Assembly (NCBI GenBank): GCA_016931495.1
Contig: JAFGER010000094.1
Span: forward strand, 1 to 40,635
Source: Chlorobiaceae bacterium
GTDB lineage: Bacteria; Bacteroidota; Chlorobiia; Chlorobiales; Chlorobiaceae
DNA length: 40,635 nucleotides
Direction: 5' to 3'
Positions 3,161 through 31,623 of the stretch are shown here, piece after piece. The position numbers were made by a program, and so were the translations under genes. A model generated the notes under the pieces. It was not told the DNA's origin, did not search any database, and worked only from the letters and a program-made list of their open reading frames with translations. The stretch's first letter is position 1, and every line of letters starts with the position of its first letter.

Positions 3161-3187
3161 TGCGCGGTTGGCCGATATGAAACGAGT

Positions 3188-6225: not shown

Positions 6226-6298
6226 GCGCAGGTGTTCATGCGTTCTCGGAAAGAATGCCCGTCGTGCGTTACGGCTGTGGGGGGGCTGGCAGGCAGGG

Positions 6299-7270
6299 TC
6301 AGCTCCTGCCGAGAAGAAGGGTGCTTGCCGTTCTGTTTCGCCGGGCGACAAGTTCGATCACTATGGGGCCAAGCAGGCCGGCGATGGTGCCTGCTGCGAA
6401 AAGCAGCCAGGTGTTGGTGAGGCCGAGTTTGGTCAGCGTGATTCTCGACGCGGCGGTAAAGAAGACATGGAAAAGATAGATGGCGTAGGAATAGTTGCCG
6501 ATTGCGGCCAGCCATCCTGATTCGGCTTTCGTGAAAAGAAGGGCCGAGCAGGTTAACGTACCGATGACGAGCGCGTTGATGGAGCGGCGTTCACCTCCGT
6601 ATTCGTGACCAAAAAAGACGAGAAAGAGGATCACGGCAGCGACGGCGATGTAGCCTTTTGCCTGGGGATGACTGAGTTGCAGGGGGAAGCGGGTGCTGTA
6701 GAGGCCCGCAAGAAAATAGGGGAACAGATAGAAGGCTCCGGCGATGGAAAACCAGGGCGTGCCGACATTGGCGACGTATGCTATGGCCGCGACGAGGTAA
6801 ACGATGGCAAAGTTTTTCCGGCTCTCAAGCACTTTCCATTGTTCGAGCAGCATGATGACGATAAAGATCAGAAAGAGCGATTCGAGAAACCAGTAGTGCG
6901 CGACGGGCTTGAGATGGAGATACTGCCACTCCTGGATCTGCTGGTTGGTGCCGGGGGTGATGGCCTGAACGATGGCGAAGATGGTGCCTATCACGAGCAT
7001 GGGAACGATCAGGCGGCGTATCTTGCCGTTGACGAAGCCTTTCCAGTTGCCCGAGTAGGGCCTCCAGCCGTAAACCAGTCCCGACAGAAAGGTAAAGAGC
7101 GGCATCCTGATGTAGGCGAGGAGGTTATTGGCATCCTTGAGAAATCCTTCATGCAATTTGAGCCCTGTGTCCGGCGTGATGCCGATCACATGGTACGCCA
7201 CAAGCAGGATGCATGCCAGGCCTCTGAGGGTGTCAACGGGGATGTTGCGTTTTTTTGTTTTTGTTGCCAT
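6299..7270 (-). CDS. Acyltransferase 3 family membrane protein (EPS modification)
   Basis: A 323-residue polytopic protein of the acyltransferase-3/OafA-WecH family, which O-acylates sugars of surface polysaccharides at the inner membrane. It begins with the family signature (NIPVDTLRGLACILLVAYHVIG, with the conserved R and H) and has about ten hydrophobic segments. The ATG at 7270 was chosen because it places this signature at the N-terminus; there is no clear Shine-Dalgarno. It lies 14 bases after the preceding glycosyltransferase gene and is the last gene of the long minus-strand EPS operon, facing ablB across 73 bases with no obvious terminator. The acyl group and target sugar cannot be told. 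Confidence 0.88.
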   Translation of the reverse strand: MATKTKKRNIPVDTLRGLACILLVAYHVIGITPDTGLKLHEGFLKDANNLLAYIRMPLFTFLSGLVYGWRPYSGNWKGFVNGKIRRLIVPMLVIGTIFAIVQAITPGTNQQIQEWQYLHLKPVAHYWFLESLFLIFIVIMLLEQWKVLESRKNFAIVYLVAAIAYVANVGTPWFSIAGAFYLFPYFLAGLYSTRFPLQLSHPQAKGYIAVAAVILFLVFFGHEYGGERRSINALVIGTLTCSALLFTKAESGWLAAIGNYSYAIYLFHVFFTAASRITLTKLGLTNTWLLFAAGTIAGLLGPIVIELVARRNRTASTLLLGRS

Positions 7271-7284
7271 CGGTCGGGTTTGTT

Positions 7285-8481: not shown

Positions 8482-9698
8482 GAGCGCTCCAGTTCGTTCC
8501 GGAAGTGCCGGGCCAGCAGGTCGTTGTTTTTGTGCTGGTTGTACATGTCGCTGACTTTCCGGCGTCCCGCTTTGCCGAACTGCGTGCGAAGCGCGGGGCT
8601 GTCGAGCAGCTTGCGGATCTGGCGGGCGAGGTCTTGCGCGTCGCCCGGCACGGCGAGCAGTCCGTCCTCTTCATGTTCGATCAACTCGGGAATGCCGGTG
8701 ATGCGCGTCGAGATGACCGGAATCTCCTTGGCCATCGCCTCCATGAGCACCACCGGCACCCCCTCGGCGAAGCTCGCCAGCACGAAAATGTTGGCTCGGT
8801 CGTAGTGCTCGCGCACCTTGTCCTGGCCGAGCGCGCCGGTGAAGAGCACCTTGCCCGCGATGCCCACCGACTGCGCGTAGCTTTTCAGCGATTCGCGGTC
8901 GGGGCCGTCGCCCACGAAAGTGAGGTGGAACGGCACGTCCGTTTTGTCGAGCATCGCGCACGCTTCGATCAGGATGTGCTGCCCCTTGGCGGGCGTCAGC
9001 CTGCCGACGCAGAGCAGCTCCGGCACGGCGTTCGAGGGTTCCGGGCGCGGCGCGTACAGCTCGGGATCGATGCCGCAGCGCACGATGTGGAAGCGATTCC
9101 ACCGCTCCACCTCGCTGATGCGCATGATCTGGCTGCGGCAGTAGTGGCTGATGCAGCGCACGAACGAGGCTTCGCGCACCTTGTCGGGCAGGAGCGCCGT
9201 GTCAACCGTGTAGAAGATGTCGGGGCCGTGCACCGAGATGCTGAAGGTGATGCCGCCGTAGCGCTTCATGAGCATCGCCACCAGCGCCGTCGGGTTGCCG
9301 AAGTGCTCGTGGATGTGCGTGATGCCGCGCTGGTGCGCCCAGCGCAGCAAAATGCCCGCTTCGGCGAAGTAGGCCGCCGCTTTGACCGGATTTTTCGGGC
9401 CGCGGAAGAGCAGCCGGAAAGCGTCCGCCGCCATCCGGAAGTATCCTCCCGGATTTTTCGCGAGGCAGTGCAGGTGCGCTCCGGCGATGGCCGTCACGGA
9501 TTGCGAGAGCACCATCAGCGTGTTGGCGGCCTCCTCCTGTTCGGCGGGGGTCATGAGGTCGAGCTTTTCCGGCCTGTGGATCGACGCCGTGTGGACCGTC
9601 ATTCCGGCCTTGCGCAGCGACTCGATCTCGCGGTAGATGAAGGTGTGCGAGATGGCCGGGTACTCGCTGCACAGATAGGCGATGGGGGTTCGGGTCAT
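8478..9698 (-). CDS. Glycosyltransferase, family 4 (WcaL-like)
   Basis: A 406-residue GT-B fold enzyme. The N-terminus (IAYLCSEYPAISHTFIYREIESL) resembles colanic-acid WcaL-type and related transferases. The C-terminal GT4 domain shows LLCVGRLTPAKGQHILIEA, LTFVGDGPDRESL and the E-x7-E motif region SFAEGVPVVLMEAMAKEIPVIST. Soluble, expected to act at the cytoplasmic face of the membrane on the growing EPS repeat unit. It overlaps its upstream neighbour by 4 bases and its downstream neighbour by 4 bases, so it is well fixed in the operon. Sugar specificity is not readable. Confidence 0.9.
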   Translation of the reverse strand: MTRTPIAYLCSEYPAISHTFIYREIESLRKAGMTVHTASIHRPEKLDLMTPAEQEEAANTLMVLSQSVTAIAGAHLHCLAKNPGGYFRMAADAFRLLFRGPKNPVKAAAYFAEAGILLRWAHQRGITHIHEHFGNPTALVAMLMKRYGGITFSISVHGPDIFYTVDTALLPDKVREASFVRCISHYCRSQIMRISEVERWNRFHIVRCGIDPELYAPRPEPSNAVPELLCVGRLTPAKGQHILIEACAMLDKTDVPFHLTFVGDGPDRESLKSYAQSVGIAGKVLFTGALGQDKVREHYDRANIFVLASFAEGVPVVLMEAMAKEIPVISTRITGIPELIEHEEDGLLAVPGDAQDLARQIRKLLDSPALRTQFGKAGRRKVSDMYNQHKNNDLLARHFRNELERS

Positions 9699-10792: not shown

Positions 10793-11890
10793 TTACGGGG
10801 TTGATGCCTGTTTTTTCTGCCGGGAGAGAATGGTCAGCGCCTGGCTCGCCTTGCTGAGCAGCGACTTCTGCGACAGGCACGTGAGCAGGCAGAGCTTGTC
10901 GCACTTGATCGTCGCTTCGCGGATCTTTCTGGCCTTCGCGCCCGTCCATATCTCCCGCGCCGACTCACTGGTGGTGTTGCCGATGGAGGGGAAGTGGAAG
11001 CAGAGCTTCACCTCGCCGTCGGGGCGGATGTAGAATTCGTGCAGCCCGATGCGGCAGGGCAGGTGCTCCGGCGAGGCTTTCTCTTCGCGGAAGCTGGCCG
11101 GCATGAGGCCCAGAATCTCCTCGCTGTTCATGATCGGCGACCCGGCGCGTTTCATCTCGACGAGCCGGTCGATCACGGCCTCGAATTCGGCCATATCCTT
11201 CTCTTCGATCCAAAGCTCGTCGTACGTTTCGGGCGTCCAGCGGCCGAGCGGCTGGAAGTTCACGGCAGTCGCTCCGATCTTCTCCGCCCACCGGACGATT
11301 TCGGGAAGCTCCCGGAAGTTGAGCGACATGATGGTCGGCTTGATGATGACCGGGAAGGTGACGCCCTGTTTTTTCTGTTCAGCCTGAAGCAGCGCGATGC
11401 CCCGCACGATGCGGTCGAACAGGCCGTTCATGCCGCGCACGTAGTCGTGCACCGCCGCGTCGGTCGAGTCCAGCGAAATGTTGAGGTTGAAGGGTTTGGC
11501 GGCGACGAGCGCGGCGACGTTCCTTTCGTTCAGCAACGCGCCGTTGGTGGTGACTCCGGCAAGAATCTCGTGGTCGCGGCAGAAACGGAGAATATCGATA
11601 AAGCCTTTTTTGATAAAGGGTTCACCACCGCTGAAGTTGATGGAGTAGCGCCCGGTGAACTCCTTGATGCCCAGCAGCGTCTTCTGCCACTCTTCGACCG
11701 TCATCTCCGGCGTGTACTCCGTCTGGCGCCAGTATTCGCAGTGGCGGCACTTGCAGTTGCAGCGCTCGTTGAAGAGTGCGTGGAAGGTGACCGGCCTGGT
11801 GAAATCGATGCCGGTTTTGAGATAGAGCGATTCTGCAACCGCGTTGCGGGTGTGGCTGACACCCATGCGGGCAAGTTCAGTGATGTTCAT
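10793..11890 (-). CDS. Radical SAM protein with SPASM-like cysteine tail
   Basis: A 365-residue radical SAM enzyme. The cluster-binding motif is C44, C48, C51 (NERCNCKCRHCEYW); the following INFSGGEPFI is the SAM-binding GGE motif, and NISLDSTDAAVHDYVRG is the typical strand-4 region. Further cysteines in the second half (LPCRIG, VKLCFHF, IKCDKLCLLTC) suggest a SPASM/twitch-like auxiliary Fe-S site. Similar proteins occur in some EPS/lipid gene clusters, but the reaction is unknown to me. It lies between the VanZ-like gene (12 bases) and a GT2 gene (3 bases). Possible roles are sugar or lipid-carrier modification, or peptide modification; see the 42-codon ORF upstream in the same operon. Confidence 0.85.
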   Translation of the reverse strand: MNITELARMGVSHTRNAVAESLYLKTGIDFTRPVTFHALFNERCNCKCRHCEYWRQTEYTPEMTVEEWQKTLLGIKEFTGRYSINFSGGEPFIKKGFIDILRFCRDHEILAGVTTNGALLNERNVAALVAAKPFNLNISLDSTDAAVHDYVRGMNGLFDRIVRGIALLQAEQKKQGVTFPVIIKPTIMSLNFRELPEIVRWAEKIGATAVNFQPLGRWTPETYDELWIEEKDMAEFEAVIDRLVEMKRAGSPIMNSEEILGLMPASFREEKASPEHLPCRIGLHEFYIRPDGEVKLCFHFPSIGNTTSESAREIWTGAKARKIREATIKCDKLCLLTCLSQKSLLSKASQALTILSRQKKQASTP

Positions 11891-20609: not shown

Positions 20610-21764
20610 TCATTCGCCGCTGGGGTCGGTGACGAATCCCTTCTGGCCCCAGACCTTCTGGCGCAGCTCCTGCATGATGCCCAGCGATTCCAGATTGCTC
20701 AGGTTGAGGTTGAGCATCTGCATGGAGGGCAAGAGCTTTTCGAGCGCATAGTTGAATTTGGCCATGCCGCCGGGGCTGACATAGATGATGTCGTTGGACA
20801 TGAGCGAAAAGTTCTGGGTGAAGTCGCCCTTTTCAAGCAGGTTTTTCAGATCGACCCTGACCACCTCGCCCTTGACGGTCTGCTGCCGGATGACGAAGAT
20901 TTTTTCGGGGTCAGCCTTGGCGTTCATGCCTCCGGCAAGCATGATCGCCCTGATGACGGTCATGCCGCTTTTGATCTCGATGGCTCCGGGGCTCACCACC
21001 TCGCCGAGCACATAGACCATCTCGTCGGCGGCTTCGGGGATGTAGATGACGTCGTTGTTGCGGATCGGGGCGTTCAGGGCCATGTTGCCGTTGCGCAGGA
21101 GATCCTGCAGGTCGATCCAGATGATGGTGTCGTTGCCGCGGATGATGGCGCACTTGGTGAGCGACACGGCCCGGTTCTGGTCGGGGATGCCGCCTGCCAG
21201 CGCCAGCGCTTCGAGCAGCGAGCCCTGGCCGGGGAAGTTGATCACGCCGGGTTTGCTGACCCTGCCGAGCACGAAGGCCTTGTTGTTGTGGAACTCCAGT
21301 ACGCGCACGGTCACTTCGGGCCTGATGTAAAAGGTTTCAAGCTTCGAGGTGATGAGCGCCTGCACCTCGCCGACGCTCTTGCCGAGCACCTGAAGGCTGC
21401 CGATTCTTGGCACGGTGATCATGCCGTCGGGCGAGACCACGATGCCCTCCTGCGTCAGTTCGGGCCGCCGCCATACCTGGATGGTGAGCCGGTCGCCCGG
21501 CCCGAAGCGGTACTCGAACGGCTCTTGCGTGTCGAGTGACTTGACCCGGTCGGGCGTGGCGAACTCCTGCACCTTCGGGGGCATGTCGGTTTTGAATTCG
21601 CTCTGTTCGTTTTTGCCGAGCGTGGTCTGTTGGGGGGAAATCGAGTTGCATGCGGCAAGCACGGTGCACAGCATTGCCGAGAGCAGCAGGGCGGTCAGGG
21701 CGCGCAGGAGCTGGCGGAGCGGCGCAAAACCGCGCAGGTCCGCGGATGATTCGGAGCGTCTCAT
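20610..21764 (-). CDS. Polysaccharide export lipoprotein, Wza-like
   Basis: A 384-residue outer-membrane export protein. Residues 15-38 form a lipoprotein signal with the lipobox LAAC, so C39 would be the lipidated residue. It is followed by the poly-export domain (about 70-150: YRFGPGDRLTIQVWRRPEL, VSPDGMITVPRIG) and two SLBB domains (about 155-235 and 240-320: VLGRVSKPGVINFPGQGSLL and VLGEVVSPGAIEIKSG). The ATG at 21764 overlaps the upstream stop (ATGA). Together with the Wzc-like protein it forms the periplasm-spanning export path. It has an additional helical tail (about 330-384), possibly the amphipathic helix of the pore. Confidence 0.95.
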   Translation of the reverse strand: MRRSESSADLRGFAPLRQLLRALTALLLSAMLCTVLAACNSISPQQTTLGKNEQSEFKTDMPPKVQEFATPDRVKSLDTQEPFEYRFGPGDRLTIQVWRRPELTQEGIVVSPDGMITVPRIGSLQVLGKSVGEVQALITSKLETFYIRPEVTVRVLEFHNNKAFVLGRVSKPGVINFPGQGSLLEALALAGGIPDQNRAVSLTKCAIIRGNDTIIWIDLQDLLRNGNMALNAPIRNNDVIYIPEAADEMVYVLGEVVSPGAIEIKSGMTVIRAIMLAGGMNAKADPEKIFVIRQQTVKGEVVRVDLKNLLEKGDFTQNFSLMSNDIIYVSPGGMAKFNYALEKLLPSMQMLNLNLSNLESLGIMQELRQKVWGQKGFVTDPSGE

Positions 21765-22270
21765 GACTTTTTCGGAATGATTCTGGCCGGTATGCCGACG
21801 GCGATCGAATTGTCGGGAACCGATGCAATCACCACGGCATTGGCGCCAATATCGACGTTGTCGCCGATGGTGATGTTGCCGAGCAGCTTGGCTCCGGTGC
21901 CGATGTTGACCCGGTTGCCGATTTTCGGCGCGGCTTTCTCTTCGATGTTTTTCAGCCCGACGGTCACGCCGTTGCGGATGATGCAGTCGTCGCCGAAGCT
22001 TGCGTAGCCGCTGATGATGATGTCGCCGAAGTGCTCGATGCGGAAATTCCTGCCGACAGGCACCTCGCAGGGCAGTTCGATGCCGGTCATGATCTGCACG
22101 ATTTTGTAGAGCAGTTTGTAGAGCAGCGAAAACGGCTTGCGGAGCAGCGCGTTGCCGATACGGTAACGCCACCGCCCAAAGCGATAGACCACCATCACCC
22201 AGAATCCCTGCTGGCTCCAGTGGCCTTCATAAACCTTCAGGTCGGCCCGCAGGTTGCTGAACAGCGCCAT
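21761..22270 (-). CDS. Hexapeptide-repeat acetyltransferase, serine-acetyltransferase-like
   Basis: A 169-residue CysE-like protein: a helical N-terminus with GFWVMVVYRFGRWRYRIGNALLR and a hexapeptide beta-helix (about 70-160) ending SIAVGIPARII. This N-terminal type is common in EPS loci, where such proteins probably O-acetylate sugars. It overlaps the Wza start by 4 bases (ATGA) and lies 8 bases after a GT2 gene. It is related to, but clearly different from, the other acetyltransferase of the operon at 13786-14328. Confidence 0.87.
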   Translation of the reverse strand: MALFSNLRADLKVYEGHWSQQGFWVMVVYRFGRWRYRIGNALLRKPFSLLYKLLYKIVQIMTGIELPCEVPVGRNFRIEHFGDIIISGYASFGDDCIIRNGVTVGLKNIEEKAAPKIGNRVNIGTGAKLLGNITIGDNVDIGANAVVIASVPDNSIAVGIPARIIPKKS

Positions 22271-22278: not shown

Positions 22279-23253
22279 TTACCAGGGGGTTTGGGGTGAC
22301 TGACGGCCAAAACGGGTGTCGGCGAGCGAGCGGATGATCTGGCTCATGGTGGTGCTGGCCATCGCCCGCTTCCGTGGAGCGCTCGCCGAGGGAATCGCCA
22401 GGTTTTTCAGGTAGCGGAGCAGATACCAGCCGAGTTCGACGCCCGCGCTGCCGAGCACGGTGGCAAGGCTATGGTTCTTGCGGTAGTAGAGCCACTCGCT
22501 GCGCATCCTGAACGAGAGAACCTGTGAGCCGGACTCTTCGAAGGTTTTGTCTTTACGGGTCTTGCTGCTTGCTCCTCCGATGTGCATCACCTCGGCGTTC
22601 GGAATGAAAAAGACCTTCCAGCCCGCTTTTTTTGCCCGCAGACAGAGGTCGGTCTCCTCGTAGTAGATGAAGAAGCGTTCGTCGAACGCGCCGATGGCGT
22701 CGAGCATCGCTTTGCGCACGATGGTGAAGGTGCCGGGCACCCAGTCCACCTCCATCGGGCGGTCGTGGGCAAAGCCGCCGAATTCGTGCCGGTTGAAGAG
22801 CGTCGAGTCGGGGAATTTCGCGCCCAGGCCCGAAAGGGTCATCAGCTTGGTGAAGGGCGACGGGAAACGCCGCGCCGACGGTTCGAGCCGTCCTTCGGGC
22901 GAGATGATCCTGCCGCCGCACAGGCCGCACTCCGGATGCCCGTCCATGAAGCGCACGGCGTTCGGTATCGACGACGGGCCGACGTAGGCGTCGGGGTTCA
23001 GCAGCACATAATAGCGCCCCGAGGCCTTGGCGAAGGCCTGGTTGTTGGCGGCCGCAAAGCCGAGGTTCTGCCTGTTGGCGATCAGGCGCACCTGCGGAAA
23101 GCGTTCGAGCACCATCTCCGCCGACCGGTCGCGGGAATCGTTGTCCACCACGAAAACCTCCATCTCCTCTTCCATGCCGTTGCCGAAGAGCGCTTCAAGG
23201 CAGTTGCCCAGAATTTCCTTCGTATTGTAGCTGACGATGACGACGGTAATCAT
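22279..23253 (-). CDS. Glycosyltransferase, family 2 (rhamnosyltransferase-like)
   Basis: A 324-residue GT2 enzyme. Motifs in order: ITVVIVSYNTKEIL at the start, VFVVDNDSRDRS, RLIANRQNLGFAAANNQ, VLLNPDAYV (metal-binding NPD, typical of the WbbL/rhamnosyltransferase branch), and FFIYYEETDLCLRAKKAGW (catalytic-base EETD). The ATG at 23253 is 4 bases from the end of the RsbW-like gene. A rhamnosyl or related deoxysugar transfer is likely from the NPD/EETDLC pattern but not proven. Confidence 0.9.
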   Translation of the reverse strand: MITVVIVSYNTKEILGNCLEALFGNGMEEEMEVFVVDNDSRDRSAEMVLERFPQVRLIANRQNLGFAAANNQAFAKASGRYYVLLNPDAYVGPSSIPNAVRFMDGHPECGLCGGRIISPEGRLEPSARRFPSPFTKLMTLSGLGAKFPDSTLFNRHEFGGFAHDRPMEVDWVPGTFTIVRKAMLDAIGAFDERFFIYYEETDLCLRAKKAGWKVFFIPNAEVMHIGGASSKTRKDKTFEESGSQVLSFRMRSEWLYYRKNHSLATVLGSAGVELGWYLLRYLKNLAIPSASAPRKRAMASTTMSQIIRSLADTRFGRQSPQTPW

Positions 23254-23257: not shown

Positions 23258-23674
23258 TCAGAGCTTTTTTGACATGGAGATGATGTTCGCATCCCCATCC
23301 CGGCGGTAGGTGACCGTGTCCATGACCTTGCGGATGATCAGCAGTCCGTAGCCCCCTTCCGGATAGCTTTCTATATCGGGTTGCGGCGTCTCGATGCCGA
23401 ATGGCTCGTTGGTGTCGCGCACGGTGACGGTGAGCTGGTGGCGTTCAGCAATGAAGGTCAGCGTTACCGGCGGCAGTTCGTCCTGGCACGCATGGAGCGC
23501 CGAATTGGTGAATGCCTCGCTGACGGCCAGCTCGAAGGCGTTGATGAATTCGCAGTTGTTGTCTTTCGGATGGCACTCGCCGCAGACAAGAGCGGCAACG
23601 GAGGCGGCTGTCTGGGCGGCCAGACGGGTGAAGATCAGCTCGCCCGGCAGGGTGAGGGTGATGACTTTCTTCAT
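23258..23674 (-). CDS. RsbW/SpoIIAB-like serine kinase (anti-sigma-factor type)
   Basis: A 138-residue GHKL ATPase of the HATPase_c_2 type. The N box is ELAVSEAFTNSALHA (E and N for Mg-ATP), the G1 region is VRDTNEPFG and the G2 region PEGGYGLLIIRKVMD. In partner switching such kinases phosphorylate a STAS antagonist on serine and bind either the STAS protein or another target. The ATG at 23674 is fixed by GGAGG seven bases ahead and by the ATGA overlap with the STAS gene; a GTG two codons earlier lacks spacing. No sigma factor gene is in the window, so the target may be an EPS protein. Confidence 0.9.
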   Translation of the reverse strand: MKKVITLTLPGELIFTRLAAQTAASVAALVCGECHPKDNNCEFINAFELAVSEAFTNSALHACQDELPPVTLTFIAERHQLTVTVRDTNEPFGIETPQPDIESYPEGGYGLLIIRKVMDTVTYRRDGDANIISMSKKL

Positions 23675-24021
23675 TTGCACGCCTCCTGCTGCATGGCCGC
23701 AAACTCGACGGCGGCGCCGGTGTCGTCGAAGATGTGAAACAGCTTCTGGGCGTTCGTGATCTCGAAGACCTTGCGCACCTTGTCATTCATGCAGGCCAGG
23801 AAGAGGTCGCACTCCTGCTGGCGCTTTTTTCTTGCCGCGCCAACGATGGAGCCCAGGCCGCTGCTGTCGATGAAATCGACCTTTTCCAGATCGAGCACGA
23901 CGGTCTGGCCGGGGTCGCCAACTGCCGGATTGGCCCGAAATTCCGGACAGGAGAGCGCATCGAGCGTGCCATTGAGCGTGACGACGCTTATGCCGTTTTG
24001 TGTGGTTTCGGTGATGATCAT
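23671..24021 (-). CDS. STAS-domain anti-sigma-factor antagonist
   Basis: A 116-residue RsbV/SpoIIAA-like protein. It shows the STAS fold pattern: ISVVTLNGTLDAL, VVLDLEKVDFIDSSGLGSIVGAAR and a C-terminal FEITNAQKLFHIFDD. The serine in DSSGLG is the normal phosphorylation site of the cognate kinase. It overlaps the kinase gene downstream (ATGA) and the fusion gene upstream (ATGA), so the three are translated together. It is the more likely direct partner of the adjacent kinase. Confidence 0.93.
   Translation of the reverse strand: MIITETTQNGISVVTLNGTLDALSCPEFRANPAVGDPGQTVVLDLEKVDFIDSSGLGSIVGAARKKRQQECDLFLACMNDKVRKVFEITNAQKLFHIFDDTGAAVEFAAMQQEACK
23682..23686 (-). promoter_or_regulatory. Ribosome binding site deciding the RsbW-like start
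   Basis: GGAGG on the minus strand lies 7 bases before the ATG at 23674 but only 1 base before the alternative GTG at 23680, so the ATG is the better start. Confidence 0.75.
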
Positions 24022-25418
24022 GCGGTGATTTTTTCCTGAATCCGGTTGATGTAGGCTTTGAAGAAAAGGGCGATGTCCGTTACCGGGTTGCTGTGCGCGA
24101 GGTGAAAGCGTTCGACGATGGAGGCGTCTTCGCTTTTGCCGCAGCCCGGCCACTCCTCGGCTTCGGCGTAGCTGAACACTCCCGGACGGTAGGCTGTCAT
24201 GGCGGTGGCGTTGCTATCGCCACGCTCTTCTGCGCTGACCGGCGTGCTGCCGATCAGGGCGAGCTGGCCGCCGAGAACTCTGAAGAGCATCAGGAACCGG
24301 TCAAGCGACAGCGCGGCGGCCAGCGTGCCGAGCGCGCCGTGATGGGGGAGGCTGACCGTTTTGAGCCTGATCGTGCCGTTTCCTTTGCCGTCGATGATTT
24401 CCGCCGGACAGGGCTTCCATTTCCCCGACAGGCTGAGCAATGGCCAGAGGAGGAGGAAGGGCGGCAGCAGCAAGCCGATCATCAGCAGGGCCACAAGCGC
24501 GTGGATGAGCAGTCTCGGAAACGCCGCCAGCACCGGGTCCTGCCGGATGCCGCTGAGCAGGTGGGGGTCTTCCATGGCGATCGAAGCGCCGCTCTGCGGT
24601 TCAATCAGCAGGTTGCCCGATGCGATCCGTCCGCTGACTTCGAGATTTTCGCCGAGGTAGGTGTGGTCGAGCACGATGCTGGAGCTTACCGAACTCTCCT
24701 TGTCAATGATGACGTCGCTGCCAATGATTGCCGAAGGGCCGATGATCGTGCCGCCGAGTAGCTGCACGTTGTCGCCGATGCTGACCGGCTTGCGGATCTC
24801 CACCGATTTGCTGATGACCACGTTCCGCCCGATGGCGCAACCCGGCTCGCCGCCGTAGCCCGGCAGCACGTATCGCTCGGCGCCGCTTTCGAGGGTCTCC
24901 ATCGAAGCCTCGTAATAACTTGCCGTCGAGTCGAGCGGGATGAGTGAAATGCCGGCCTCGTCCGGCGCTGCCGTTCCGGTTCCGGGCGCACCGGCAAGGA
25001 TGATCCCACCGTCGCCGCACGAGGCAAACGGGCCGTCGGGCGCGCCATCGATCAGGCGCGCGTACTCCTGGCGTTTGTCGTAACGGATGAAGTTGAAGCC
25101 GCTGACGACCATGATGCGCTCGTCGCCACAGAAGCGGCGGTTTTTGCCGAGCAGCACCGGCACGCTGTCGTCGGGCTGGAGGCTGCCGAACGACAGGTCG
25201 ATGCCCCAGCGCCTGCCATCCTCGCAATACCGTTCAACCTCGGCCAGCGGCCCGTCGCACAGCAGGCGGATCGCGGTGCTGCCGGTCAAAATGGCGAAGT
25301 CGATCAGGAATTCGACGAAGGGTTTGTTGCACAACGGCAGCAGCAGGGGATGGATCGCCGGAAAGGCCTCCTGCGCCCAGCCATACTCCCGCTCCCTGAT
25401 GCAGAGCAGTGTTTTCAT
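24018..25418 (-). CDS. Fusion: degenerate nucleotidyltransferase, beta-helix and decayed PGT module
   Basis: A 466-residue protein of three parts. Residues 1-150 resemble sugar-nucleotide pyrophosphorylases (LPLCNKPFVEFLIDFAIL), but the G-rich loop is lost (IREREYGWAQEAFP) and the catalytic NGD is VSGFN. Residues about 195-290 are hexapeptide repeats (CAIGRNVVISKSVEIRKPVS). Residues about 305-335 form a hydrophobic hairpin, and 340-460 match the bacterial sugar-transferase (PGT) core in decayed form: SLDRFLMLFRVLGGQLALIG stands where active enzymes have a DELPQ...GDMSLVG core, so the catalytic Glu is Arg while the Asp (about 373) remains; RPGVFS corresponds to RPGITG. Catalysis is doubtful; a membrane scaffold or sensor role is inferred. 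It sits between two STAS genes, with ATGA overlaps on both sides. Confidence 0.72.
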   Translation of the reverse strand: MKTLLCIREREYGWAQEAFPAIHPLLLPLCNKPFVEFLIDFAILTGSTAIRLLCDGPLAEVERYCEDGRRWGIDLSFGSLQPDDSVPVLLGKNRRFCGDERIMVVSGFNFIRYDKRQEYARLIDGAPDGPFASCGDGGIILAGAPGTGTAAPDEAGISLIPLDSTASYYEASMETLESGAERYVLPGYGGEPGCAIGRNVVISKSVEIRKPVSIGDNVQLLGGTIIGPSAIIGSDVIIDKESSVSSSIVLDHTYLGENLEVSGRIASGNLLIEPQSGASIAMEDPHLLSGIRQDPVLAAFPRLLIHALVALLMIGLLLPPFLLLWPLLSLSGKWKPCPAEIIDGKGNGTIRLKTVSLPHHGALGTLAAALSLDRFLMLFRVLGGQLALIGSTPVSAEERGDSNATAMTAYRPGVFSYAEAEEWPGCGKSEDASIVERFHLAHSNPVTDIALFFKAYINRIQEKITA

Positions 25419-25780
25419 CGCTCGTTCCGGTTGTCAGGCCAGGCGGAAAACGAGGCTGCCGCCAGGCTGGCGCTGGAGAAGATGGAGAAGAGCTTCGATG
25501 CCTGGGTCAGTTCAAACACCATGGAAACCTTCGGCGTCAGAGCTGCAAGCCGGAGGTCGCCCTCCTTTTCGATGGTCTTGCGCAGGCTTCCGACCATAAA
25601 GCCGAGGCCGCTGCTGTCGATGAACTCCAGGCCGGCGCAGTCGAAGACCAGATATGGAGACTGTTCGAGCCACTCCGGGAAAAGCTTCTGAAGCGGCTTG
25701 ACCGAGCGCGCATCGAGCCGTCCCTGTAGTTCGGATGTTCCTATGAGGCGGCCGTCAATGTTTTCGAGACTGAATTTCAT
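25415..25780 (-). CDS. STAS-domain anti-sigma-factor antagonist (second copy)
   Basis: A 121-residue STAS protein: LIGTSELQGRLDARSV, then YLVFDCAGLEFIDSSGLGFMVGSLRKT with the phosphorylatable serine in DSSGLG, then VFELTQASKLFSIF. It is similar in layout to the STAS protein at 23671-24021 but clearly diverged, so two antagonists could respond to one kinase or serve different targets. It overlaps the fusion gene by 4 bases and lies 12 bases after the initiating PGT gene. Confidence 0.93.
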   Translation of the reverse strand: MKFSLENIDGRLIGTSELQGRLDARSVKPLQKLFPEWLEQSPYLVFDCAGLEFIDSSGLGFMVGSLRKTIEKEGDLRLAALTPKVSMVFELTQASKLFSIFSSASLAAASFSAWPDNRNER

Positions 25781-25792
25781 GATTGGTCCGGT

Positions 25793-26512
25793 TTAGTAAG
25801 CTCCCCGGCCGCTGAGCACGGCGGGGACGGTTCTCAGAAGAAGGCGCAGGTCGTTGAACACGCCGGCGCTCTGGATGTACTGCAAGTCGAGCCTGACCTG
25901 GTCGGTAAACGGAATGTCGCTCCGGCCGCTGACCTGCCAGAGGCCGGTGATGCCCGGAATGGCGTGCAGCCGCTTGCGCTGTTCGAGCGTGTACTGGGCA
26001 ACCTCTTTCGGCACGGGCGGCCTCGGCCCGACCAGGCTCATATCGCCCTTGAGCACGTTGATGAGCTGGGGCAGCTCGTCGATGCTGAACTTGCGGATGA
26101 TCCTGCCGGTACGGGTGATTCTCGGATCGTTCTTCATCTTGAAGATCACGCCGTCTTTCGACTCGTTCTGCGCGGCCAGTTCATCCTTGATCTGGTCGGC
26201 ATTGACGACCATCGACCGGAACTTGTAGAACCTGAAGTGCTTGCCGTTGCGGCCAACCCTGATCTGCACAAAGAAAATCGGGCCGGGATTTTCAATCACG
26301 ATAGACAGGGCGGTGATGATGAAGACCGGCAGGAGCGCCAGAAGGGCCATGGTCGAGACGACCAGGTCGAGCAGGCGCTTCATCAGGTACGAGAACCGGA
26401 TGGTGGCTTCCCATGCGGCGACCTTCACTTTGCCCCGCAGGCGGAGGGATGGTCTGATGGTGCCGCTGATTTTCCTGATCAGTTCCCGTCTGACAGTCGG
26501 GTCGAGTTCCAT
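25793..26512 (-). CDS. Initiating sugar-phosphate transferase (monotopic PGT, WcaJ/WbaP C-terminal type)
   Basis: A 239-residue membrane enzyme that transfers a sugar-1-phosphate from a UDP-sugar to undecaprenyl phosphate and so starts each EPS repeat unit. A re-entrant helix (about 44-72) is followed by NPGPIFFVQIRVGRNGKHFRFYKFRSM and the catalytic D145-E146 pair in SIDELPQLINVLKGDMSLVG, then GPRPP and HAIPGITGLWQVSGRSDI. It is the minimal PGT form without the N-terminal CoA-binding-like domain. It overlaps the upstream WecG-type fusion gene by 34 bases. It is the only PGT here with an intact active site. Confidence 0.95.
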   Translation of the reverse strand: MELDPTVRRELIRKISGTIRPSLRLRGKVKVAAWEATIRFSYLMKRLLDLVVSTMALLALLPVFIITALSIVIENPGPIFFVQIRVGRNGKHFRFYKFRSMVVNADQIKDELAAQNESKDGVIFKMKNDPRITRTGRIIRKFSIDELPQLINVLKGDMSLVGPRPPVPKEVAQYTLEQRKRLHAIPGITGLWQVSGRSDIPFTDQVRLDLQYIQSAGVFNDLRLLLRTVPAVLSGRGAY

Positions 26513-27870
26513 GGCTTCAGGTTGTTGAGGCTCCGGTTAAAAAGCTTCCATTTCAGGACGCGGTACAGAAACAGGGGATTGCCGATAACATACCGTTTCC
26601 ACATTCTTCCAGGCTCCTGCAGAATTCTGTAGAGCCATTCGAGGCCGATTTCGCGCATCCAGCGTGGGGCGCGCCTGATGTTGCCCGAAAAAAAGTCGAA
26701 CAGGCCGCCGACGCCCATCAGGATGCCCGGTTGCAGTTCGCCGCGGTGACTCGCGATCCACTGCTCCTGTATCGGCGCGCCGAACGCCACCAGAAGGATC
26801 GAGGCGCCCGAGCGGTTGATGGTTTCGATGACCTCCCGGCTCTCTTTTTCGCGGTCGAAATAGCCGTGCATGACGCCTGCGATGCTGGCCCCGTAGTTCT
26901 GCCGGATGGTTTCGGCTGCTTGAGCGGCCACGCCCGGTTTGCCGCCGAGCAGGAAGATCGAGCGGTTTTCGGCGGCAGCCATCGAGCACAGAAAGGGGAG
27001 CATGTCGGTGCCGTTGATGTTTTCACGCAGCGGTGTGCCGAGCATTTTTCCGGCGATGACCAGCCCGATGCCGTCGGGAAAGATATGGTCGGCCGAGCCG
27101 AGCGCCGAGCGGTAGGCGCTGTCGGTCACCATTTTGTTCATGCAGTCGGGATTGACGAAGAAGATCGACGACTGCGTCTGCCGCACGAGATGACGCCGCA
27201 TCAGTTCGATTGCCTCGCTCATGGTGATGTTGTCGATCTCCAGATCGAGCAGCTCGAACAGAGGGCCGGGCGCCGCCTCAACGTTTTCGGAAAAAAGCAT
27301 TGCCGGAAGGGCGCGCAACAACAGCAGGAGATCGTAAGCGGGACGCTTGCTGTAAAGGTATTCCCGGTCGGTGGCCTGCTGGCCTTCATGCGCGATTCTG
27401 CTGCCTTTGCGGATCTCCCACAGGGAGACGATGCCCGGCTTGACCATGCTGATGCCGGCCTGTGCCACATCGGGGCTGGCGGGTTGCCACTCGCGGATCG
27501 ACGTGCCCGCAAGGGCGAGCCTGCCGGTAAACAGCTCCAGAAAGAGCGGCAGCCTGGCCAGCCGTCCGCTCATGCCCGAGAAGTGCAGCACGGTGACCGG
27601 GTTGCCCTTGTAGCCCGTGATCCTCTTTTTGTCGAACACCGGTTTTCCGGCCGGAAGCCTGACGGCAAGCCTGCCCAGGAGCAGCGGAAGCAGCAGGAGC
27701 AGCGTGACGCAGAGCGCCACCGTTATTTCAAGCAGCCGAACGAGGCCTTCCGTGAGCGCCGTGCCGATGACGAGGGCGGCTCGCTTCCACAGGCGGCGTC
27801 GCCTTTTGCCGCGTCCGGCAAGGCGTTTTTCCAGCGCCTTGAGCTGTTCCGCTGACGGTTCCGTCGCCAT
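26479..27870 (-). CDS. WecG/TagA-family glycosyltransferase fused to a decayed PGT module
   Basis: A 463-residue protein. The C-terminal part (about 205-430) is a GT26 enzyme (LEIDNITMSEAIEL, PDGIGLVIAGKMLG, LLGGKPGVA, VAFGAPIQEQW, GVGGLFDFFSGNIRRAPRW), which adds the second sugar of a repeat unit. The N-terminal part keeps the outline of a monotopic PGT: a helix LLEITVALCVTLLLLLPLLL, KPVFDKKRITGYKGNPVTV, RLARLPLFLELFTGRLALAG and a RPGIT-like VKPGIVSLW. The catalytic Asp-Glu pair is replaced by Ala-Arg, so that part is catalytically dead and probably serves as membrane anchor or dimer partner. The ATG at 27870 was chosen; one at 27903 overlapping the phosphatase gene is an alternative. Confidence 0.85.
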   Translation of the reverse strand: MATEPSAEQLKALEKRLAGRGKRRRRLWKRAALVIGTALTEGLVRLLEITVALCVTLLLLLPLLLGRLAVRLPAGKPVFDKKRITGYKGNPVTVLHFSGMSGRLARLPLFLELFTGRLALAGTSIREWQPASPDVAQAGISMVKPGIVSLWEIRKGSRIAHEGQQATDREYLYSKRPAYDLLLLLRALPAMLFSENVEAAPGPLFELLDLEIDNITMSEAIELMRRHLVRQTQSSIFFVNPDCMNKMVTDSAYRSALGSADHIFPDGIGLVIAGKMLGTPLRENINGTDMLPFLCSMAAAENRSIFLLGGKPGVAAQAAETIRQNYGASIAGVMHGYFDREKESREVIETINRSGASILLVAFGAPIQEQWIASHRGELQPGILMGVGGLFDFFSGNIRRAPRWMREIGLEWLYRILQEPGRMWKRYVIGNPLFLYRVLKWKLFNRSLNNLKPWNSTRLSDGN

Positions 27871-27886
27871 GAGGTTGCAGCGGTTT

Positions 27887-29545
27887 TCAGCAGCCGGCGC
27901 CATCTCCGGTGCTTTTGCCGAGGAAGCGGATGACGATGCAGGTCACATCGTCATCGAAGTTGTCGCAACGGCAGAATTCCCAGAGCGTCTGCCGGATGGT
28001 TTCGATGATCTGTTCGGTCGGCAGTGACGCATGCGCTTCCAGAAGCGCCATGAAGCGTTCGGCGCCAAAGAGCTCGCCGTCGGGTGAACGGGTTTCGACA
28101 ATGCCGTCCGAGTAGAGCACCAGCAGGTCGCCGGCGTCGAGCGTGAACTCCGATTCATGGTACTCGTCCTTTTCGCTCATGCCCATCGGCAGGTTTTTGC
28201 CCTTGAGTTGCAGGCAGCGCCCGGAGCTTGCGGGCAGATGGATGATGGGGGTGTGGCCGCAGTCAACGAACCGGCAGCGACGCTGTCGCAGGTCGATGCG
28301 CAGAAACAGCATGGTGGCGAAAAGGTTCAGCTCGATCAGTTCGTGAATGCAGCGCTGGCGCATCAGCTCGACGATCCCCTCAAGCGGCGGAAGGGTATCG
28401 GCGTTCGAGCGCTGCTCGGCGACGGCCTTGAGGAACAGTGACTTCATGCCTGCGCCGACCAGCGCGGACTGGATGCCGTGGCCCATGACGTCACCGACAA
28501 GCATGTCGGCCTGCCAGGGGGTGTATTCGATCAGTTCGGTGAAATCTCCATCGAGATGGCCCGAAGAGAGCATAAGCTGGCTGATTTCGAGGTTGCAAAG
28601 CGTGCCGGGCGGCTGGCTTTGCAGCAGCTTTTTCTCGATCTGCGACTCGAACTCCTTCTGCATGTTTTCGTAATGCAGGCGGCTTTTCGCCTCTTCGATC
28701 CGTGTGGTGATGTCGCGGGCGATCAGCACGCTGTGCGGCCCGCTCTCCAGGTGCACGCACCCTTTGGAGACCTCGAGCGGCAGCCGCGAACCATCCGTGC
28801 GGACTCCTTCGAGCTGGCCCACAAAACTGCCGCAGTCGTCTTCCTTGCCATCGGCCGCATGGGCGGTCAGGCTTTCAAGCACAATGCCGCCCTGGGGCAT
28901 CGGAAAGATCTCCGAAATGTGCTGTTCGGGGCAGTTTTTTCTCTCGAAGCCGAAGATGGTTTCGGCAGCCGAGTTGCGGTAGCGGATCACCCCCTTGCCG
29001 TCGAGCATGAAGACCGCGTCCTGGGCCGCGTCGTTCATCGAGCGGAACTGCTCTTCGCTCCGCTTCAGATCGGTGGTCAGTTTTTCAAGCGAGAGGTTGG
29101 CGTCGGTCAGTTGCCGGTTTTTGAGGGAAAGCTCTTCAAAAAGCTCCTGACGCTCGATTTTCATGCAGTAGTAGTCGATGGCGTCGTTCAGGATGCCCTT
29201 GAAGGCTTCGGGATCGACCGGCTTGGGAATGAACCGGAACACCTCGCCCTTGTTGATCGATTCGATGATCTGCTCGATGTCCTGGGAGCCGCTGACGATC
29301 ATGCGCACCGTATCGGGGTAGAGGCGCTTGACCTCCTTGATGAGTTCAAGGCCATTCATGCCCGGCATGCGAAGGTCGGAGACAACCACATCCACCGGGG
29401 TTCTGCCGAGCAGGTCGAGCGCTTCATGGGGACTTTCCATGAAGTGTTTCTGGTAGCGCTCCCTTCTCAGAAAACGCTGGAGCGACTGGAGGATGTCCGA
29501 CTCGTCATCGACAAAAAGGATGGAGATGTCTTCGCGGTTTTTCAT
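27887..29545 (-). CDS. Response-regulator PP2C phosphatase (REC-PAS-SpoIIE)
   Basis: A 552-residue soluble protein. REC domain at 1-125 with DDE at 13-15, phospho-acceptor D57 (VVVSDLRMPGMNG) and a KP near 107; coiled-coil linker about 130-165; PAS domain about 165-285; PP2C/SpoIIE-type phosphatase about 330-545 with the metal motifs MLVGDVMGHG, YSDGIVE and DNFDDDVTCI. In partner switching this class removes phosphate from STAS proteins, and the REC domain would let the upstream kinase control it. It overlaps the kinase gene by 4 bases (ATGA). The two STAS genes and the RsbW-like gene of the operon are the obvious partners. Confidence 0.94.
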   Translation of the reverse strand: MKNREDISILFVDDESDILQSLQRFLRRERYQKHFMESPHEALDLLGRTPVDVVVSDLRMPGMNGLELIKEVKRLYPDTVRMIVSGSQDIEQIIESINKGEVFRFIPKPVDPEAFKGILNDAIDYYCMKIERQELFEELSLKNRQLTDANLSLEKLTTDLKRSEEQFRSMNDAAQDAVFMLDGKGVIRYRNSAAETIFGFERKNCPEQHISEIFPMPQGGIVLESLTAHAADGKEDDCGSFVGQLEGVRTDGSRLPLEVSKGCVHLESGPHSVLIARDITTRIEEAKSRLHYENMQKEFESQIEKKLLQSQPPGTLCNLEISQLMLSSGHLDGDFTELIEYTPWQADMLVGDVMGHGIQSALVGAGMKSLFLKAVAEQRSNADTLPPLEGIVELMRQRCIHELIELNLFATMLFLRIDLRQRRCRFVDCGHTPIIHLPASSGRCLQLKGKNLPMGMSEKDEYHESEFTLDAGDLLVLYSDGIVETRSPDGELFGAERFMALLEAHASLPTEQIIETIRQTLWEFCRCDNFDDDVTCIVIRFLGKSTGDGAGC

Positions 29546-31623
29546 GATGGTTGATTCGATGCTTCGGCAATCTTCAGAGGGAGCCGGATGGTGAAAATCG
29601 AGCCTCCCTCCGGCGGGCAGGAGACCGAAAGGTTTCCGCCATGTTTGTTGCTGATGATGTCGTAGGAAATGCTCAGGCCGAGTCCGGTGCCTTTGCCCGG
29701 CTCCTTGGTGGTAAAAAACGGTTCAAATATGCGGTTCCTGATCTCCGCCGGTATGCCCGGGCCGTCATCGGTGATGGTGCACCAGACCGAATCCTCATCG
29801 GCGCCGGTGGCGATGAGGATTTTTCCTTTCTGCTGGCGGTGCTGCGAGGCGATGGCATGGGCGCAGTTGACGATCAGGTTCAGGAAGACCTGGTTGATCT
29901 GTTCCGGGTTGCAGGGCGCCGCCGGAAGGTCGCCCAGGCGGGTTTGCACCTCGGCGTAGTAGCGGTACTCGTTCTGCGCGATGACCAGCGTGTCGCGGAT
30001 GCCCTGATTGAGGTCGAACGGCACCCGCTGGTCGAGGGCGTGCCGGAACGAGAAGTTCCTCATGCTGCTCAGAATGGTGCTGACCCGTTCAAACCCCCGT
30101 TTTGACTCGTCGAACAGGACCGGCAGTTCATCGAGCAGGCTGTCCACATCGAGCTCCTGCTCCAGCGACCTGAGCTTTTCGATGGCCTCTTCCGGTGGCT
30201 TTTCATTGCCGATATTGCTGAAAAGCTCGCGATACCCGGCGATCAGGCGGCTCAGGTCGCTGACATCCTCCCGGAGCGTGGCGAAGTTGATCCTGACGAA
30301 ATTGATGGGGTTGTTGATTTCGTGGGCAAGTCCGGCGGCAAGCTGGCCGATCGAGGCGAGCTTTTCCTGCAAGATCATCTGCTGGTGGGTCACCTCCAGC
30401 TCGCGGGTTCGTTCCTCGACGCGCTCTTCGAGCGTCTGGTTCAGTTCGAGCAGCTTCTGCTCATTTTTCTTCCGGTCGGTGATGTCGAGCACAAGCCCGC
30501 GGATGCCGATCGGGACGTTGCGCCGGATAATCGGCTCGCTGTAGATGAGGATGGGGAACACGGAGCCATCACTCTTTATGGCCGAATACTCGTGATTGGT
30601 GAAGCTGAGCCCCTGCATTCGGGCGTACATGTTCTCGGCCACTCGCTGCCGCTCTTCAGGGGCAAAGAGCCTGAGGGCGTCGAACCCCTCTTCAATATCC
30701 TGCCTGGTGTAGCCGAACAGTTCAAGTCCGGCCTTGTTGGAAAAGATGATGTTGCCTTTCAGGTCGATCTCGAACACCGGCTGAAAAAGCAGGTCGGCCA
30801 GCTCCTGAAAGCTCTGTTCGCTTTCGGCCAGCGCCTGCTGCTCCTGTTTGCGCCGGGTGATGTCCTGCTTGATGCTGAGGAAATGGGATATTTCCGAGTC
30901 CGGCCCCATGATGGGGCAGATGATGCAGTATTCGGTGTAGAGCTCACCGTTTTTTTTCCGGTTGACGATCTCGCCCTGCCAGATGTTGCCCGCGGTGATG
31001 GTCTCCCAGAGCTTGCGGTAAAACGGCTTTGTTTGCGTTTCCGACTTCAGGATGTTCACGTTATGGCCTTTCGCCTCGGCCTCCGAGTATCCCGACAGGG
31101 CGGTGAAGCCGGGATTGGTGTATTCGATGATGCCCTGATCGCTGGTAATGACGATGCCCAGCGGAAGCTGGGTGATGGCTGCCGAAAAGAGCGTCAGCTT
31201 GCGCCGTAACTCGAACTCGGTCAGGGCATTCCTGATCATGATTCCGAGCCGGTTCCCGTTTATCGGCTTGAGCAGGTAAGCGTAGGCGCCGTAATTCATC
31301 GAGAAGACGGCCTGCTCAATATCGGCCGATCCTGAAATGATGATGACCGGGACGGCAAGATTGTGCTCTTTCAGGTAGGTGAGCACTTTCAGGCCGCTGT
31401 TTCCCGGTTCGGAGATATCGAGCAGCATCAGGTCGATCATGCAGGTGCTGAACAGCTCGATACAGGCCTCATCGCTTTCGGCCGTCAGGGAGATGTAGCC
31501 TAGTTGTTCAACGGTGGTGACCGTGATCTGCTGAGAGACAGGGTCGTTATCGACGACAAGGATTGTCGTGAAACGCTCAGGATGGTACGGCGCGTTTTCC
31601 ATACTTTCCTGGCTGGCAGTCAT
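29542..31623 (-). CDS. Soluble hybrid histidine kinase (REC-PAS-PAS-HisKA-HATPase)
   Basis: About 693 residues without membrane segments. Order: REC (about 19-140, phospho-acceptor D69 in [10 protein letters not shown]), two PAS domains (about 150-270 and 285-400), a coiled coil, the dimerisation helix with the phospho-His in [15 protein letters not shown], and the ATPase with N box [26 protein letters not shown] and GTGLGLSIS. It likely phosphorylates the REC domain of the PP2C protein encoded next, with which it overlaps (ATGA). The ATG at 31623 was chosen; an ATG at 31602 with AGGAAAG nearby is an equally good alternative. First gene of the EPS operon. The PAS ligands (redox, light or oxygen) cannot be read. 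Confidence 0.93.

What the first reader, a model, noticed from the sequence alone, without database searches (positions are those of the whole stretch)
23258..31623. Complete partner-switching cassette built into an EPS operon
The sequence shows a soluble histidine kinase, a REC-PAS-PP2C phosphatase, two STAS antagonists with intact DSSGLG sites and an RsbW-like kinase, all on one strand, with ATGA overlaps or short gaps among the genes that start EPS synthesis. No sigma factor gene lies nearby. Known partner switches mostly control sigma factors; a few act directly on biofilm or EPS output. Here the placement around the initiating PGT and two pseudo-PGT fusions suggests that the switch output may be the assembly enzymes themselves, which would be a new type of control.
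Basis: partly seen in the sequence, partly recalled or inferred. Interest (0 to 1): 0.82.

Follow-up and report, generated by a model that had tools for sequence, protein, structure and literature searches.

The report
Phospho-switch wired to polysaccharide initiation
A green sulfur bacterium keeps a complete on/off protein switch, of the kind usually used to control gene transcription, interleaved with the genes that start making its slime polymer, and related bacteria keep the same pairing, which suggests that the switch may act on the sugar-transfer machinery itself.

Summary
Confirmed: a REC-PAS-PAS histidine kinase, REC-PAS-PP2C phosphatase, two STAS proteins and an RsbW-type kinase are interleaved on one strand with a catalytic PGT and two pseudo-PGT proteins. 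In Chlorobiaceae the order PGT-STAS2-LbHPGT-STAS1-RsbW is kept in 37 of 38 loci, window included; 13 other PGT loci examined in the class have no STAS. Sigma-70 region 3, expected in SigB/SigF-type targets, matches exactly once in 94 of 98 class genomes. New here: the pseudo-PGT "LbHPGT" is a degenerate relative of a nucleotidyltransferase-LbH-PGT enzyme. In five other family labels of the phylum genes for that enzyme have a STAS gene close upstream in 19 of 19 fetched loci, and a degenerate form in a sixth in 2 of 2; nucleotidyltransferase paralogues do in 0 of 37. Most likely dephosphorylated STAS2 binds LbHPGT and gates polysaccharide initiation; binding is inferred, not shown. Against: an orthologous ECF sigma gene lies divergent to PP2C in three loci, and the PP2C-STAS1-RsbW module occurs without PGT genes nearby in two genomes. 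Precedents: SypA (target unknown) and STAS-type proteins acting on diguanylate cyclases. New variant of a known kind.

The parts
29542..31623 (-). Histidine kinase, REC-PAS-PAS-HisKA-HATPase_c; likely first gene of the signalling arm (start inferred)
   Evidence: Pfam; same-strand HK just before PP2C in 20 of 37 related loci (several loci are cut by contig or stretch ends)
27887..29545 (-). REC-PAS-PP2C (SpoIIE-type) phosphatase; overlaps HK by 4 bases
   Evidence: Pfam (SpoIIE 149 bits, Response_reg 78 bits); same-strand PP2C upstream in 31 of 37 related loci
26479..27903 (-). pseudo-PGT fused to WecG/TagA/CpsF glycosyltransferase
   Evidence: Pfam, NCBIfam; no row of the aligned set has Asp-Glu at the site; full-length fusion in 19 of 98 class genomes incl. 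own
25793..26512 (-). Catalytic monotopic PGT (initiating sugar-phosphate transferase), DE dyad present
   Evidence: Pfam; DE in 39 of 39 aligned rows; the only full PGT found in the genome
25415..25780 (-). STAS2, DSSGLG site; proposed output protein
   Evidence: Pfam; S or T at the site in 36 of 36 rows; immediately before LbHPGT in 37 of 37 related loci and in the window
24018..25418 (-). LbHPGT: degenerate NTP-transferase-like domain + left-handed beta-helix + membrane helix + PGT-like domain without the DE dyad
   Evidence: (hhalign to tri-domain family prob 99.7%)
23671..24021 (-). STAS1, DSSGLG site; proposed substrate/antagonist of RsbW
   Evidence: a second STAS1-RsbW pair is present in L028, L029 and L053
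23258..23674 (-). RsbW-type serine kinase
   Evidence: Pfam HATPase_c_2; NCBIfam RsbW models match below their cut-offs; best solved-structure match 6m36, named Serine-protein kinase RsbW, 9.5e-6
22279..23253 (-). GT2 glycosyltransferase, next gene of the EPS operon (start inferred)
   Evidence: Pfam; RsbW is directly followed by GT2 in 34 of the gene pairs counted
20610..21824 (-). Wza-like polysaccharide export protein (Poly_export/SLBB; start approximate)
   Evidence: Pfam; NCBIfam (below cut-offs)

Best explanation
A two-component-driven partner switch whose output is the enzyme complex that starts EPS synthesis. Steps: (1) the histidine kinase phosphorylates the REC domain of the PP2C (inferred from domains); (2) PP2C dephosphorylates STAS1 and/or STAS2 at the Ser of DSSGLG, while RsbW phosphorylates them (inferred from family knowledge; sites and domains intact); (3) STAS1 is the main partner and titrant of RsbW, and dephosphorylated STAS2 binds LbHPGT (inferred from conserved gene pairing); (4) LbHPGT, which lacks the PGT catalytic dyad and is a relative of an NTP-transferase/LbH/PGT enzyme, acts as the regulatory receptor that gates the neighbouring catalytic PGT and the pseudo-PGT-WecG protein (inferred). 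In other families the STAS protein would act directly on a tri-domain enzyme whose PGT dyad is intact.
For: Order PGT-STAS-LbHPGT-STAS-RsbW in 36 of 37 related loci plus the window, often with 4-base overlaps (LbHPGT/STAS1 in 24 of 36). EPS-type RsbW (177 bits or more) occurs in 39 of 98 class genomes, 38 of which have full-length LbHPGT. 13 other PGT loci examined in the class have no STAS. Outside the class, genes found by a search with the enzyme sequence alone have a STAS gene within 1.5 kb upstream in 18 of 18 and 1 of 1; the degenerate form in 2 of 2. NTP-transferase paralogues of about 850 aa from the same searches have none in 12 of 12 and 28 of 28, 37 distinct places. STAS is the constant partner, while an RsbW-like ORF lies between in 9 of 18 by own profile, which points to STAS as the direct partner. 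The PGT dyad is invariant in the 17 aligned tri-domain proteins, and the two such loci scanned more widely carry REC-SpoIIE and EPS genes. LbHPGT is homologous to them over 370 columns. No group-2/3 sigma found in the class apart from one extra match in G041. Precedent for STAS-type proteins controlling enzymes: HsbA/HsbD, BgrV/BgrR, SiaC/SiaD (passages).
Against: No interaction was tested; conserved neighbourhood can also reflect common descent of one operon and shared transcription, and the loci within each family are not independent. The PP2C-STAS1-RsbW module occurs without PGT or LbHPGT in the fetched stretches L195 and L196, so STAS1/RsbW can have another use. An orthologous ECF sigma gene (64-83% identity) lies divergent to the PP2C gene in L053, L055 and L196. 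STAS1, STAS2 and the tri-domain STAS form three separate groups in a 54-row tree, which does not tie STAS2 to the tri-domain STAS. RsbW-like genes outside Chlorobiaceae are weak: Pfam over cut-off in 2 of 5 scanned, below it in 2, none in 1.
Confidence: 0.55

Rival explanations
1. The switch controls transcription through an ECF sigma factor: RsbW sequesters the ECF factor, STAS1 releases it, and EPS genes are the regulon.
For: Orthologous ECF genes lie divergent to the PP2C gene in L053, L055 and L196. The window's genome has two ECF-size sigma genes elsewhere, on C6 and C28. L190 and L192 have an ECF-like gene about 5.5 and 7.4 kb from the STAS gene.
Against: Only 2 of the 38 Chlorobiaceae cassette loci have a sigma gene in the fetched stretch, by phmmer with the genome's own sigma proteins. 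The window's two ECF genes are on other contigs, and the C6 one is followed by a small gene that may be its own anti-sigma (not tested). RsbW-type anti-sigmas usually bind sigma factors with region 3 (recalled). It does not explain a STAS beside NTP-LbH-PGT in loci without an RsbW-like gene.
Confidence: 0.2
2. RsbW itself is the 'anti-PGT': it binds and inhibits (or phosphorylates) LbHPGT/PGT, and STAS1 is the antagonist that pulls it off, in the classical topology with an enzyme in place of sigma.
For: RsbW is a constant member in Chlorobiaceae (37 of 37 related loci and the window) and an RsbW-like ORF lies directly before the tri-domain gene in 9 of 18 distant loci.
Against: The other 9 distant loci have STAS but no profile-matching RsbW-like ORF between (L137 has an unmatched ORF of that size); L188, L189, L191 and L192 show none in the fetched stretches, about 6 to 10 kb either way, by own profile.
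Confidence: 0.13
3. RsbW sequesters the primary sigma factor RpoD, as proposed for Chlamydia Rsb (title seen in a reference list), so the switch is a global brake that happens to be encoded in the EPS operon.
For: RpoD is the only region-3 sigma in 94 of 98 class genomes.
Against: The EPS-type RsbW is absent (at 177 bits) from 59 of 98 class genomes and tracks LbHPGT; another HATPase_c_2 protein is present nearly everywhere (96 of 98 genomes have a match) and would suit a global role better.
Confidence: 0.04
4. The switch acts on another cellular enzyme (for example a c-di-GMP enzyme or a sugar-nucleotide enzyme) and the link to PGT genes is co-expression only.
For: Known non-sigma outputs are diguanylate cyclases (passages).
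Against: STAS next to the NTP-LbH-PGT gene persists while other neighbouring genes differ between families. c-di-GMP enzymes of the genome were not searched.
Confidence: 0.08

Closest known systems
SypA/SypE of the Vibrio fischeri syp polysaccharide locus
   Same: STAS protein encoded in an EPS locus that also encodes a priming PGT (R); active when unphosphorylated; the SypE-SypA effect is not on syp transcription; mechanism unknown (passages)
   Different: Kinase and phosphatase are one protein (SypE); one STAS protein is named; the PGT gene is at the 3' end of the locus; no NTP-LbH-PGT-like protein is named in the passages read
RsbU/RsbV/RsbW and SpoIIE/SpoIIAA/SpoIIAB partner switches of Bacillus
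   Same: PP2C, STAS with DSSGLG-type site, HATPase_c_2 kinase (comparison partly recalled)
   Different: No sigma gene in the window and no region-3 sigma other than RpoD found in the genome; two STAS; operon shared with PGT genes
Partner switches on diguanylate cyclases (HsbA-HsbD, BgrV-BgrR, SiaC-SiaD)
   Same: STAS-type protein controls an enzyme (passages)
   Different: Here the candidate enzyme is a sugar-phosphate transferase or its pseudoenzyme relative. HsbA is also reported to act on sigma-factor regulation (abstract)
HmpUVW of Nostoc punctiforme
   Same: Partner switch affecting hormogonium motility/polysaccharide; direct target unknown (passage)
   Different: Cyanobacterial; gene linkage to a PGT not examined here
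Bifunctional monotopic PGTs (Bi-PGT)
   Same: Extra functional domain fused to a monotopic PGT core (class described, passages)
   Different: Here NTP-transferase + LbH are fused N-terminally, next to a STAS gene; degenerate in Chlorobiaceae

Membership tests
Partner-switching system (RsbU/V/W type) | PP2C (SpoIIE) phosphatase | tested here: met
   SpoIIE 1.7e-43
Partner-switching system (RsbU/V/W type) | STAS protein with phosphorylatable Ser/Thr in DSSGLG | tested here: met
   which Ser is the phospho-site is recalled from SpoIIAA/RsbV
Partner-switching system (RsbU/V/W type) | RsbW/SpoIIAB-type ATPase kinase with N box and G2 box | tested here: met
   NCBIfam RsbW equivalog cut-offs not reached
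Partner-switching system (RsbU/V/W type) | Cognate sigma factor of the SigB/SigF type | tested here: not met
   one region-3 sigma in own genome (RpoD); of 98 class genomes 94 have exactly one, G041 two, three none; own genome 92.65% complete
Partner-switching system (RsbU/V/W type) | Reversible phosphorylation and exchange of partners | not testable with these tools
   needs biochemistry
Anti-sigma factor RsbW of SigB (equivalog) | score above the NCBIfam equivalog cut-off | tested here: not met
   39.9 bits against 145
Monotopic PGT (window 25793-26512) | Bac_transf domain with Asp-Glu dyad | tested here: met
Monotopic PGT (LbHPGT, window 24018-25418) | Asp-Glu dyad | tested here: not met
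   absent in 36 of 36 rows; domain homologous to PGT
Syp-type STAS control of EPS | STAS acts after transcription on EPS/biofilm output | not testable with these tools
   no expression or phenotype data

The most novel reading that the evidence does not exclude
An old phospho-switch module of this phylum in which a STAS protein directly gates the enzyme that commits sugars to the lipid carrier. The ancestral target is an NTP-transferase/LbH/PGT enzyme; in Chlorobiaceae that enzyme became a receptor without catalytic dyad (LbHPGT) that passes the STAS signal to a separate PGT and to a pseudo-PGT-WecG fusion. It would, as far as my searches show, be the first partner switch whose effector is a polysaccharide-initiating transferase, and it would suggest SypA-PGT contact as an answer to the open SypA question.
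Probability: 0.4. Interest if true: 0.85.

Novelty: new variant of a known kind. Interest (0 to 1): 0.7.

Why it matters
How STAS proteins tied to EPS output (SypA, HmpV) exert their effect is stated as unknown in the passages read. A STAS gene kept next to an NTP-LbH-PGT gene across seven family labels of one phylum names a concrete target. If true, cells could switch polymer output at the first committed step without new transcription, and pseudo-PGTs would gain a function as signal receptors.

Tried and rejected
Considered and set aside: the cassette as a chance cluster (rejected); a sigma gene in the window (none found); a SigB/SigF-type partner in the genome (none found). The genome-contig search with the LbHPGT profile gave only Chlorobi-labelled records (35 loci), so other phyla were not reached except by one plasmid search. 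A STAS tree did not show whether STAS1 or STAS2 is nearer to the tri-domain STAS. The first LbHPGT model was weak (pTM 0.46); adding distant relatives gave pLDDT 86.9 and pTM 0.64, with whole-chain Foldseek hits to NTP-transferase/LbH proteins. I did not try a joint model of STAS2 with PGT or LbHPGT: the tool models single chains and its output gives no inter-chain error. Limits of the controls: of the 13 PGT loci without STAS, three came from the WecG search and ten were picked from the list; they are long PGT types (open frames of 467-515 aa), none of the roughly 200-aa type was examined, and stretches ranged from 6.8 to 20 kb; L115 and L116 do have a PP2C-like match. Paper searches: searches returned 0 papers; one search returned 3, 7, 6, 10; two searches returned 3,140 and 864, of which 25 and 12 were listed. 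These cover only the held open-access library.

Papers: passages only from PMC8256260, PMC7647112, PMC9239167, PMC4517449, PMC10942596, PMC8457831, PMC5801674, PMC3610818; abstract and outline of PMC6482189. Baena et al. 2019 and Thompson et al. 2015 were seen only as citations.
Full report
What is there. The minus strand from 31623 down to 20610 begins an EPS operon: histidine kinase, REC-PAS-PP2C, pseudo-PGT-WecG, PGT, STAS2, LbHPGT, STAS1, RsbW, GT2, Wza-like export protein, continuing into further EPS genes, among them a Wzc-like one. The source is a green sulfur bacterium: genome G020, given as same genus, has a contig of 94,494 bases, and the Chlorobaculum thiosulfatiphilum contig found has the same length. 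The PGT-like end of LbHPGT scores 23.3 bits against a Pfam cut-off of 27 but is borne out by profile comparison and by a match of the family profile to solved PglC-type transferases 8e37 and 8g1n (2.6e-5 and 3.2e-5). The window's genome (2.25 Mb, 106 contigs, 92.65% complete) has its only full PGT here, 2 of its 4 STAS places and one of two HATPase_c_2 places above cut-off.

Catalytic state. The PGT Asp-Glu dyad is kept in 39 of 39 aligned PGT rows, three of which are from another family; it is absent in 36 of 36 LbHPGT rows, and no row of the WecG alignment has it (13 rows are blank there). STAS2 has Ser or Thr at the phospho-site in 36 of 36 rows. The STAS1 set has Ser or Thr in 39 of 42 rows; that set includes the genome's other short STAS protein (L018), and the 3 exceptions are extra tandem copies with Glu or Asp. 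RsbW keeps the N-box Glu and Asn in all 24 rows.

Conservation in Chlorobiaceae. A class search with the WecG fusion (98 genomes), a PGT search and fetched stretches gave 37 loci with this PGT type besides the window. The order PGT-STAS-LbHPGT-STAS-RsbW holds in 36 of 37; the exception, L051, lacks STAS1 there. A 4-base overlap occurs for LbHPGT/STAS1 in 24 of 36 pairs, STAS/RsbW in 20 of 38, STAS2/LbHPGT in 9 of 37. PP2C lies upstream in 31 of 37 and HK directly before PP2C in 20 of 37; several loci end at contig ends. By contrast WecG is fused, separate, moved or not seen. In a 394-genome phylum search LbHPGT reached full length in 38 genomes, all of this family (271 genomes had some match at 1e-3, the rest being weak partial hits). 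The EPS-type RsbW (177 bits or more) is in 39 of 98 class genomes: the 38 plus G050. Thirteen loci with other PGTs in the class (L041, L042, L046, L114-L123) have no STAS and no RsbW by my profiles; their limits are under Tried and rejected.

Beyond the class. The best hits of the LbHPGT profile outside the family were in G140, G286 and G324. In L109 and L110 a STAS gene directly precedes a degenerate NTP-LbH-PGT gene, with PP2C before the STAS and a separate PGT and WecG on the same strand; in L111 a STAS gene overlaps a 600-aa gene with an intact nucleotidyltransferase motif and an intact PGT dyad. Two weaker hits also fetched, L112 and L113, are other NTP-transferase proteins without STAS. 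A search with the 600-aa protein in the class of G324 (391 genomes) gave 18 fetched loci, L124-L141 (L124 is the L111 place; L141 is cut by its contig end; a further place in G658 was not fetched). All 18 have a STAS gene within 1.5 kb upstream; 9 have an RsbW-like ORF between by own profile (9.6-26.8 bits; Pfam HATPase_c_2 over cut-off in 2 of 5 scanned, one of the five being the unmatched ORF of L137); 6 have PP2C just downstream. The PGT dyad is invariant in the 17 aligned proteins; the nucleotidyltransferase motif is kept in most, not all (L137 departs). One more family label appeared in a phylum search: L155, STAS-tri-domain-PP2C with the dyad present. NTP-transferase paralogues of about 850 aa returned by the same searches serve as controls: STAS 0 of 12 and 0 of 28; three places are in both sets, so 37 distinct places; flanks are up to 1.5 kb and some are cut short. 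Wider stretches of ten loci were mapped with my profiles, and Pfam on seven proteins of L186 and three of L188 shows REC-SpoIIE, GT2, dTDP-sugar, UDP-glucose dehydrogenase, outer-membrane channel and Wzz-type proteins, and a histidine kinase.

Homology of LbHPGT to the tri-domain family. hhalign of 26 Chlorobiaceae against 17 tri-domain proteins: probability 99.7%, E 9.6e-27, 370 columns from the nucleotidyltransferase part through the PGT dyad region. Adding 15 distant relatives raised the AlphaFold2 model of the window protein from pTM 0.46 to 0.64; the top PDB folds are NTP-transferase plus beta-helix proteins, first 8x7s.

Sigma factors. Sigma70 region 3: 95 of 98 class genomes have a match; 94 have exactly one, G041 has a second, strong one on contig C65, perhaps contamination (not followed up), and three have none. 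The own genome has RpoD and two ECF-size sigma genes on other contigs. In 60 loci (866,800 bases, window included), scanned by phmmer with the genome's own three sigma proteins, sigma genes near cassettes were seen only in L053 and L055: ECF genes divergent to PP2C. A third orthologue lies beside a PP2C-STAS1-RsbW module without PGT genes in L196, from G066, which also has the cassette elsewhere (L054); L195, from G050, has such a module without a sigma gene. Of the ten wider distant stretches, L190 and L192 have an ECF-like gene about 5.5 and 7.4 kb from the STAS gene.

Interpretation. Since the STAS gene is the constant neighbour of the NTP-LbH-PGT gene, whether that protein keeps its PGT dyad or not and whether or not an RsbW-like gene is near, the simplest reading is that STAS binds this protein. 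In Chlorobiaceae STAS1 would pair with RsbW (the two occur as a second pair in some loci) and STAS2 with LbHPGT. The histidine kinase and PP2C would set the phosphorylation state. Shown: gene content, order, conservation, residue state, lack of a second region-3 sigma in nearly all genomes. Inferred: every protein contact and the direction of control.

Known systems. The Vibrio syp/eps locus also holds a STAS protein (A) and a priming PGT (R), which are among its most conserved proteins (passage); SypA acts when unphosphorylated, SypE's effect through it is not on syp transcription, and its mechanism is unknown (passages). STAS-type proteins that control diguanylate cyclases are known (passages). 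I found no report of a STAS protein acting on a PGT in the searches named under Tried and rejected. The phylum is Bacteroidota in GTDB terms (recalled; the tool says only 'same phylum').

Noticed in passing
L027:13607-14059; L028:2266-2619 and 3108-3488: Extra tandem STAS1 copies in the cassette carry Glu or Asp at the phospho-site (DEEG, DEDG, DDSG), like built-in phospho-mimics.
   Followed up: partly
L053:4430-5035, L055:10398-11060, L196:6926-7693: Orthologous ECF sigma genes lie divergent to the PP2C gene of the switch.
   Followed up: partly
L195:9203-11778, L196:4156-6742: PP2C-STAS1-RsbW modules close to the EPS type, without PGT or LbHPGT in the fetched stretch.
   Followed up: partly
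L197:9570-9833: In G053 an RsbW fragment (88-aa frame) stands before GT2, export and Wzc-like genes, while the five-gene core lies on another contig (L055), as if the core had moved as a unit.
   Followed up: no
L184:5624-6004 and 6001-8505 (NZ_CP107901.1): On a Streptomyces plasmid a STAS gene overlaps by 4 bases a sugar-phosphate nucleotidyltransferase gene, a possible parallel in another phylum.
   Followed up: partly
L125-L132, L137, L141 (between STAS and tri-domain gene): ORFs of 187-217 aa, most weakly HATPase_c_2-like (L137 unmatched), perhaps diverged RsbW proteins with a long insertion.
   Followed up: partly
window 10793-11890: A protein whose sequence looks like a radical SAM protein lies inside the EPS operon (read from the translation, no family search).
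   Followed up: no
G041:C65:624-854: A second sigma70 region-3 match far stronger (110 bits) than the usual RpoD match of the class; perhaps contamination.
   Followed up: no
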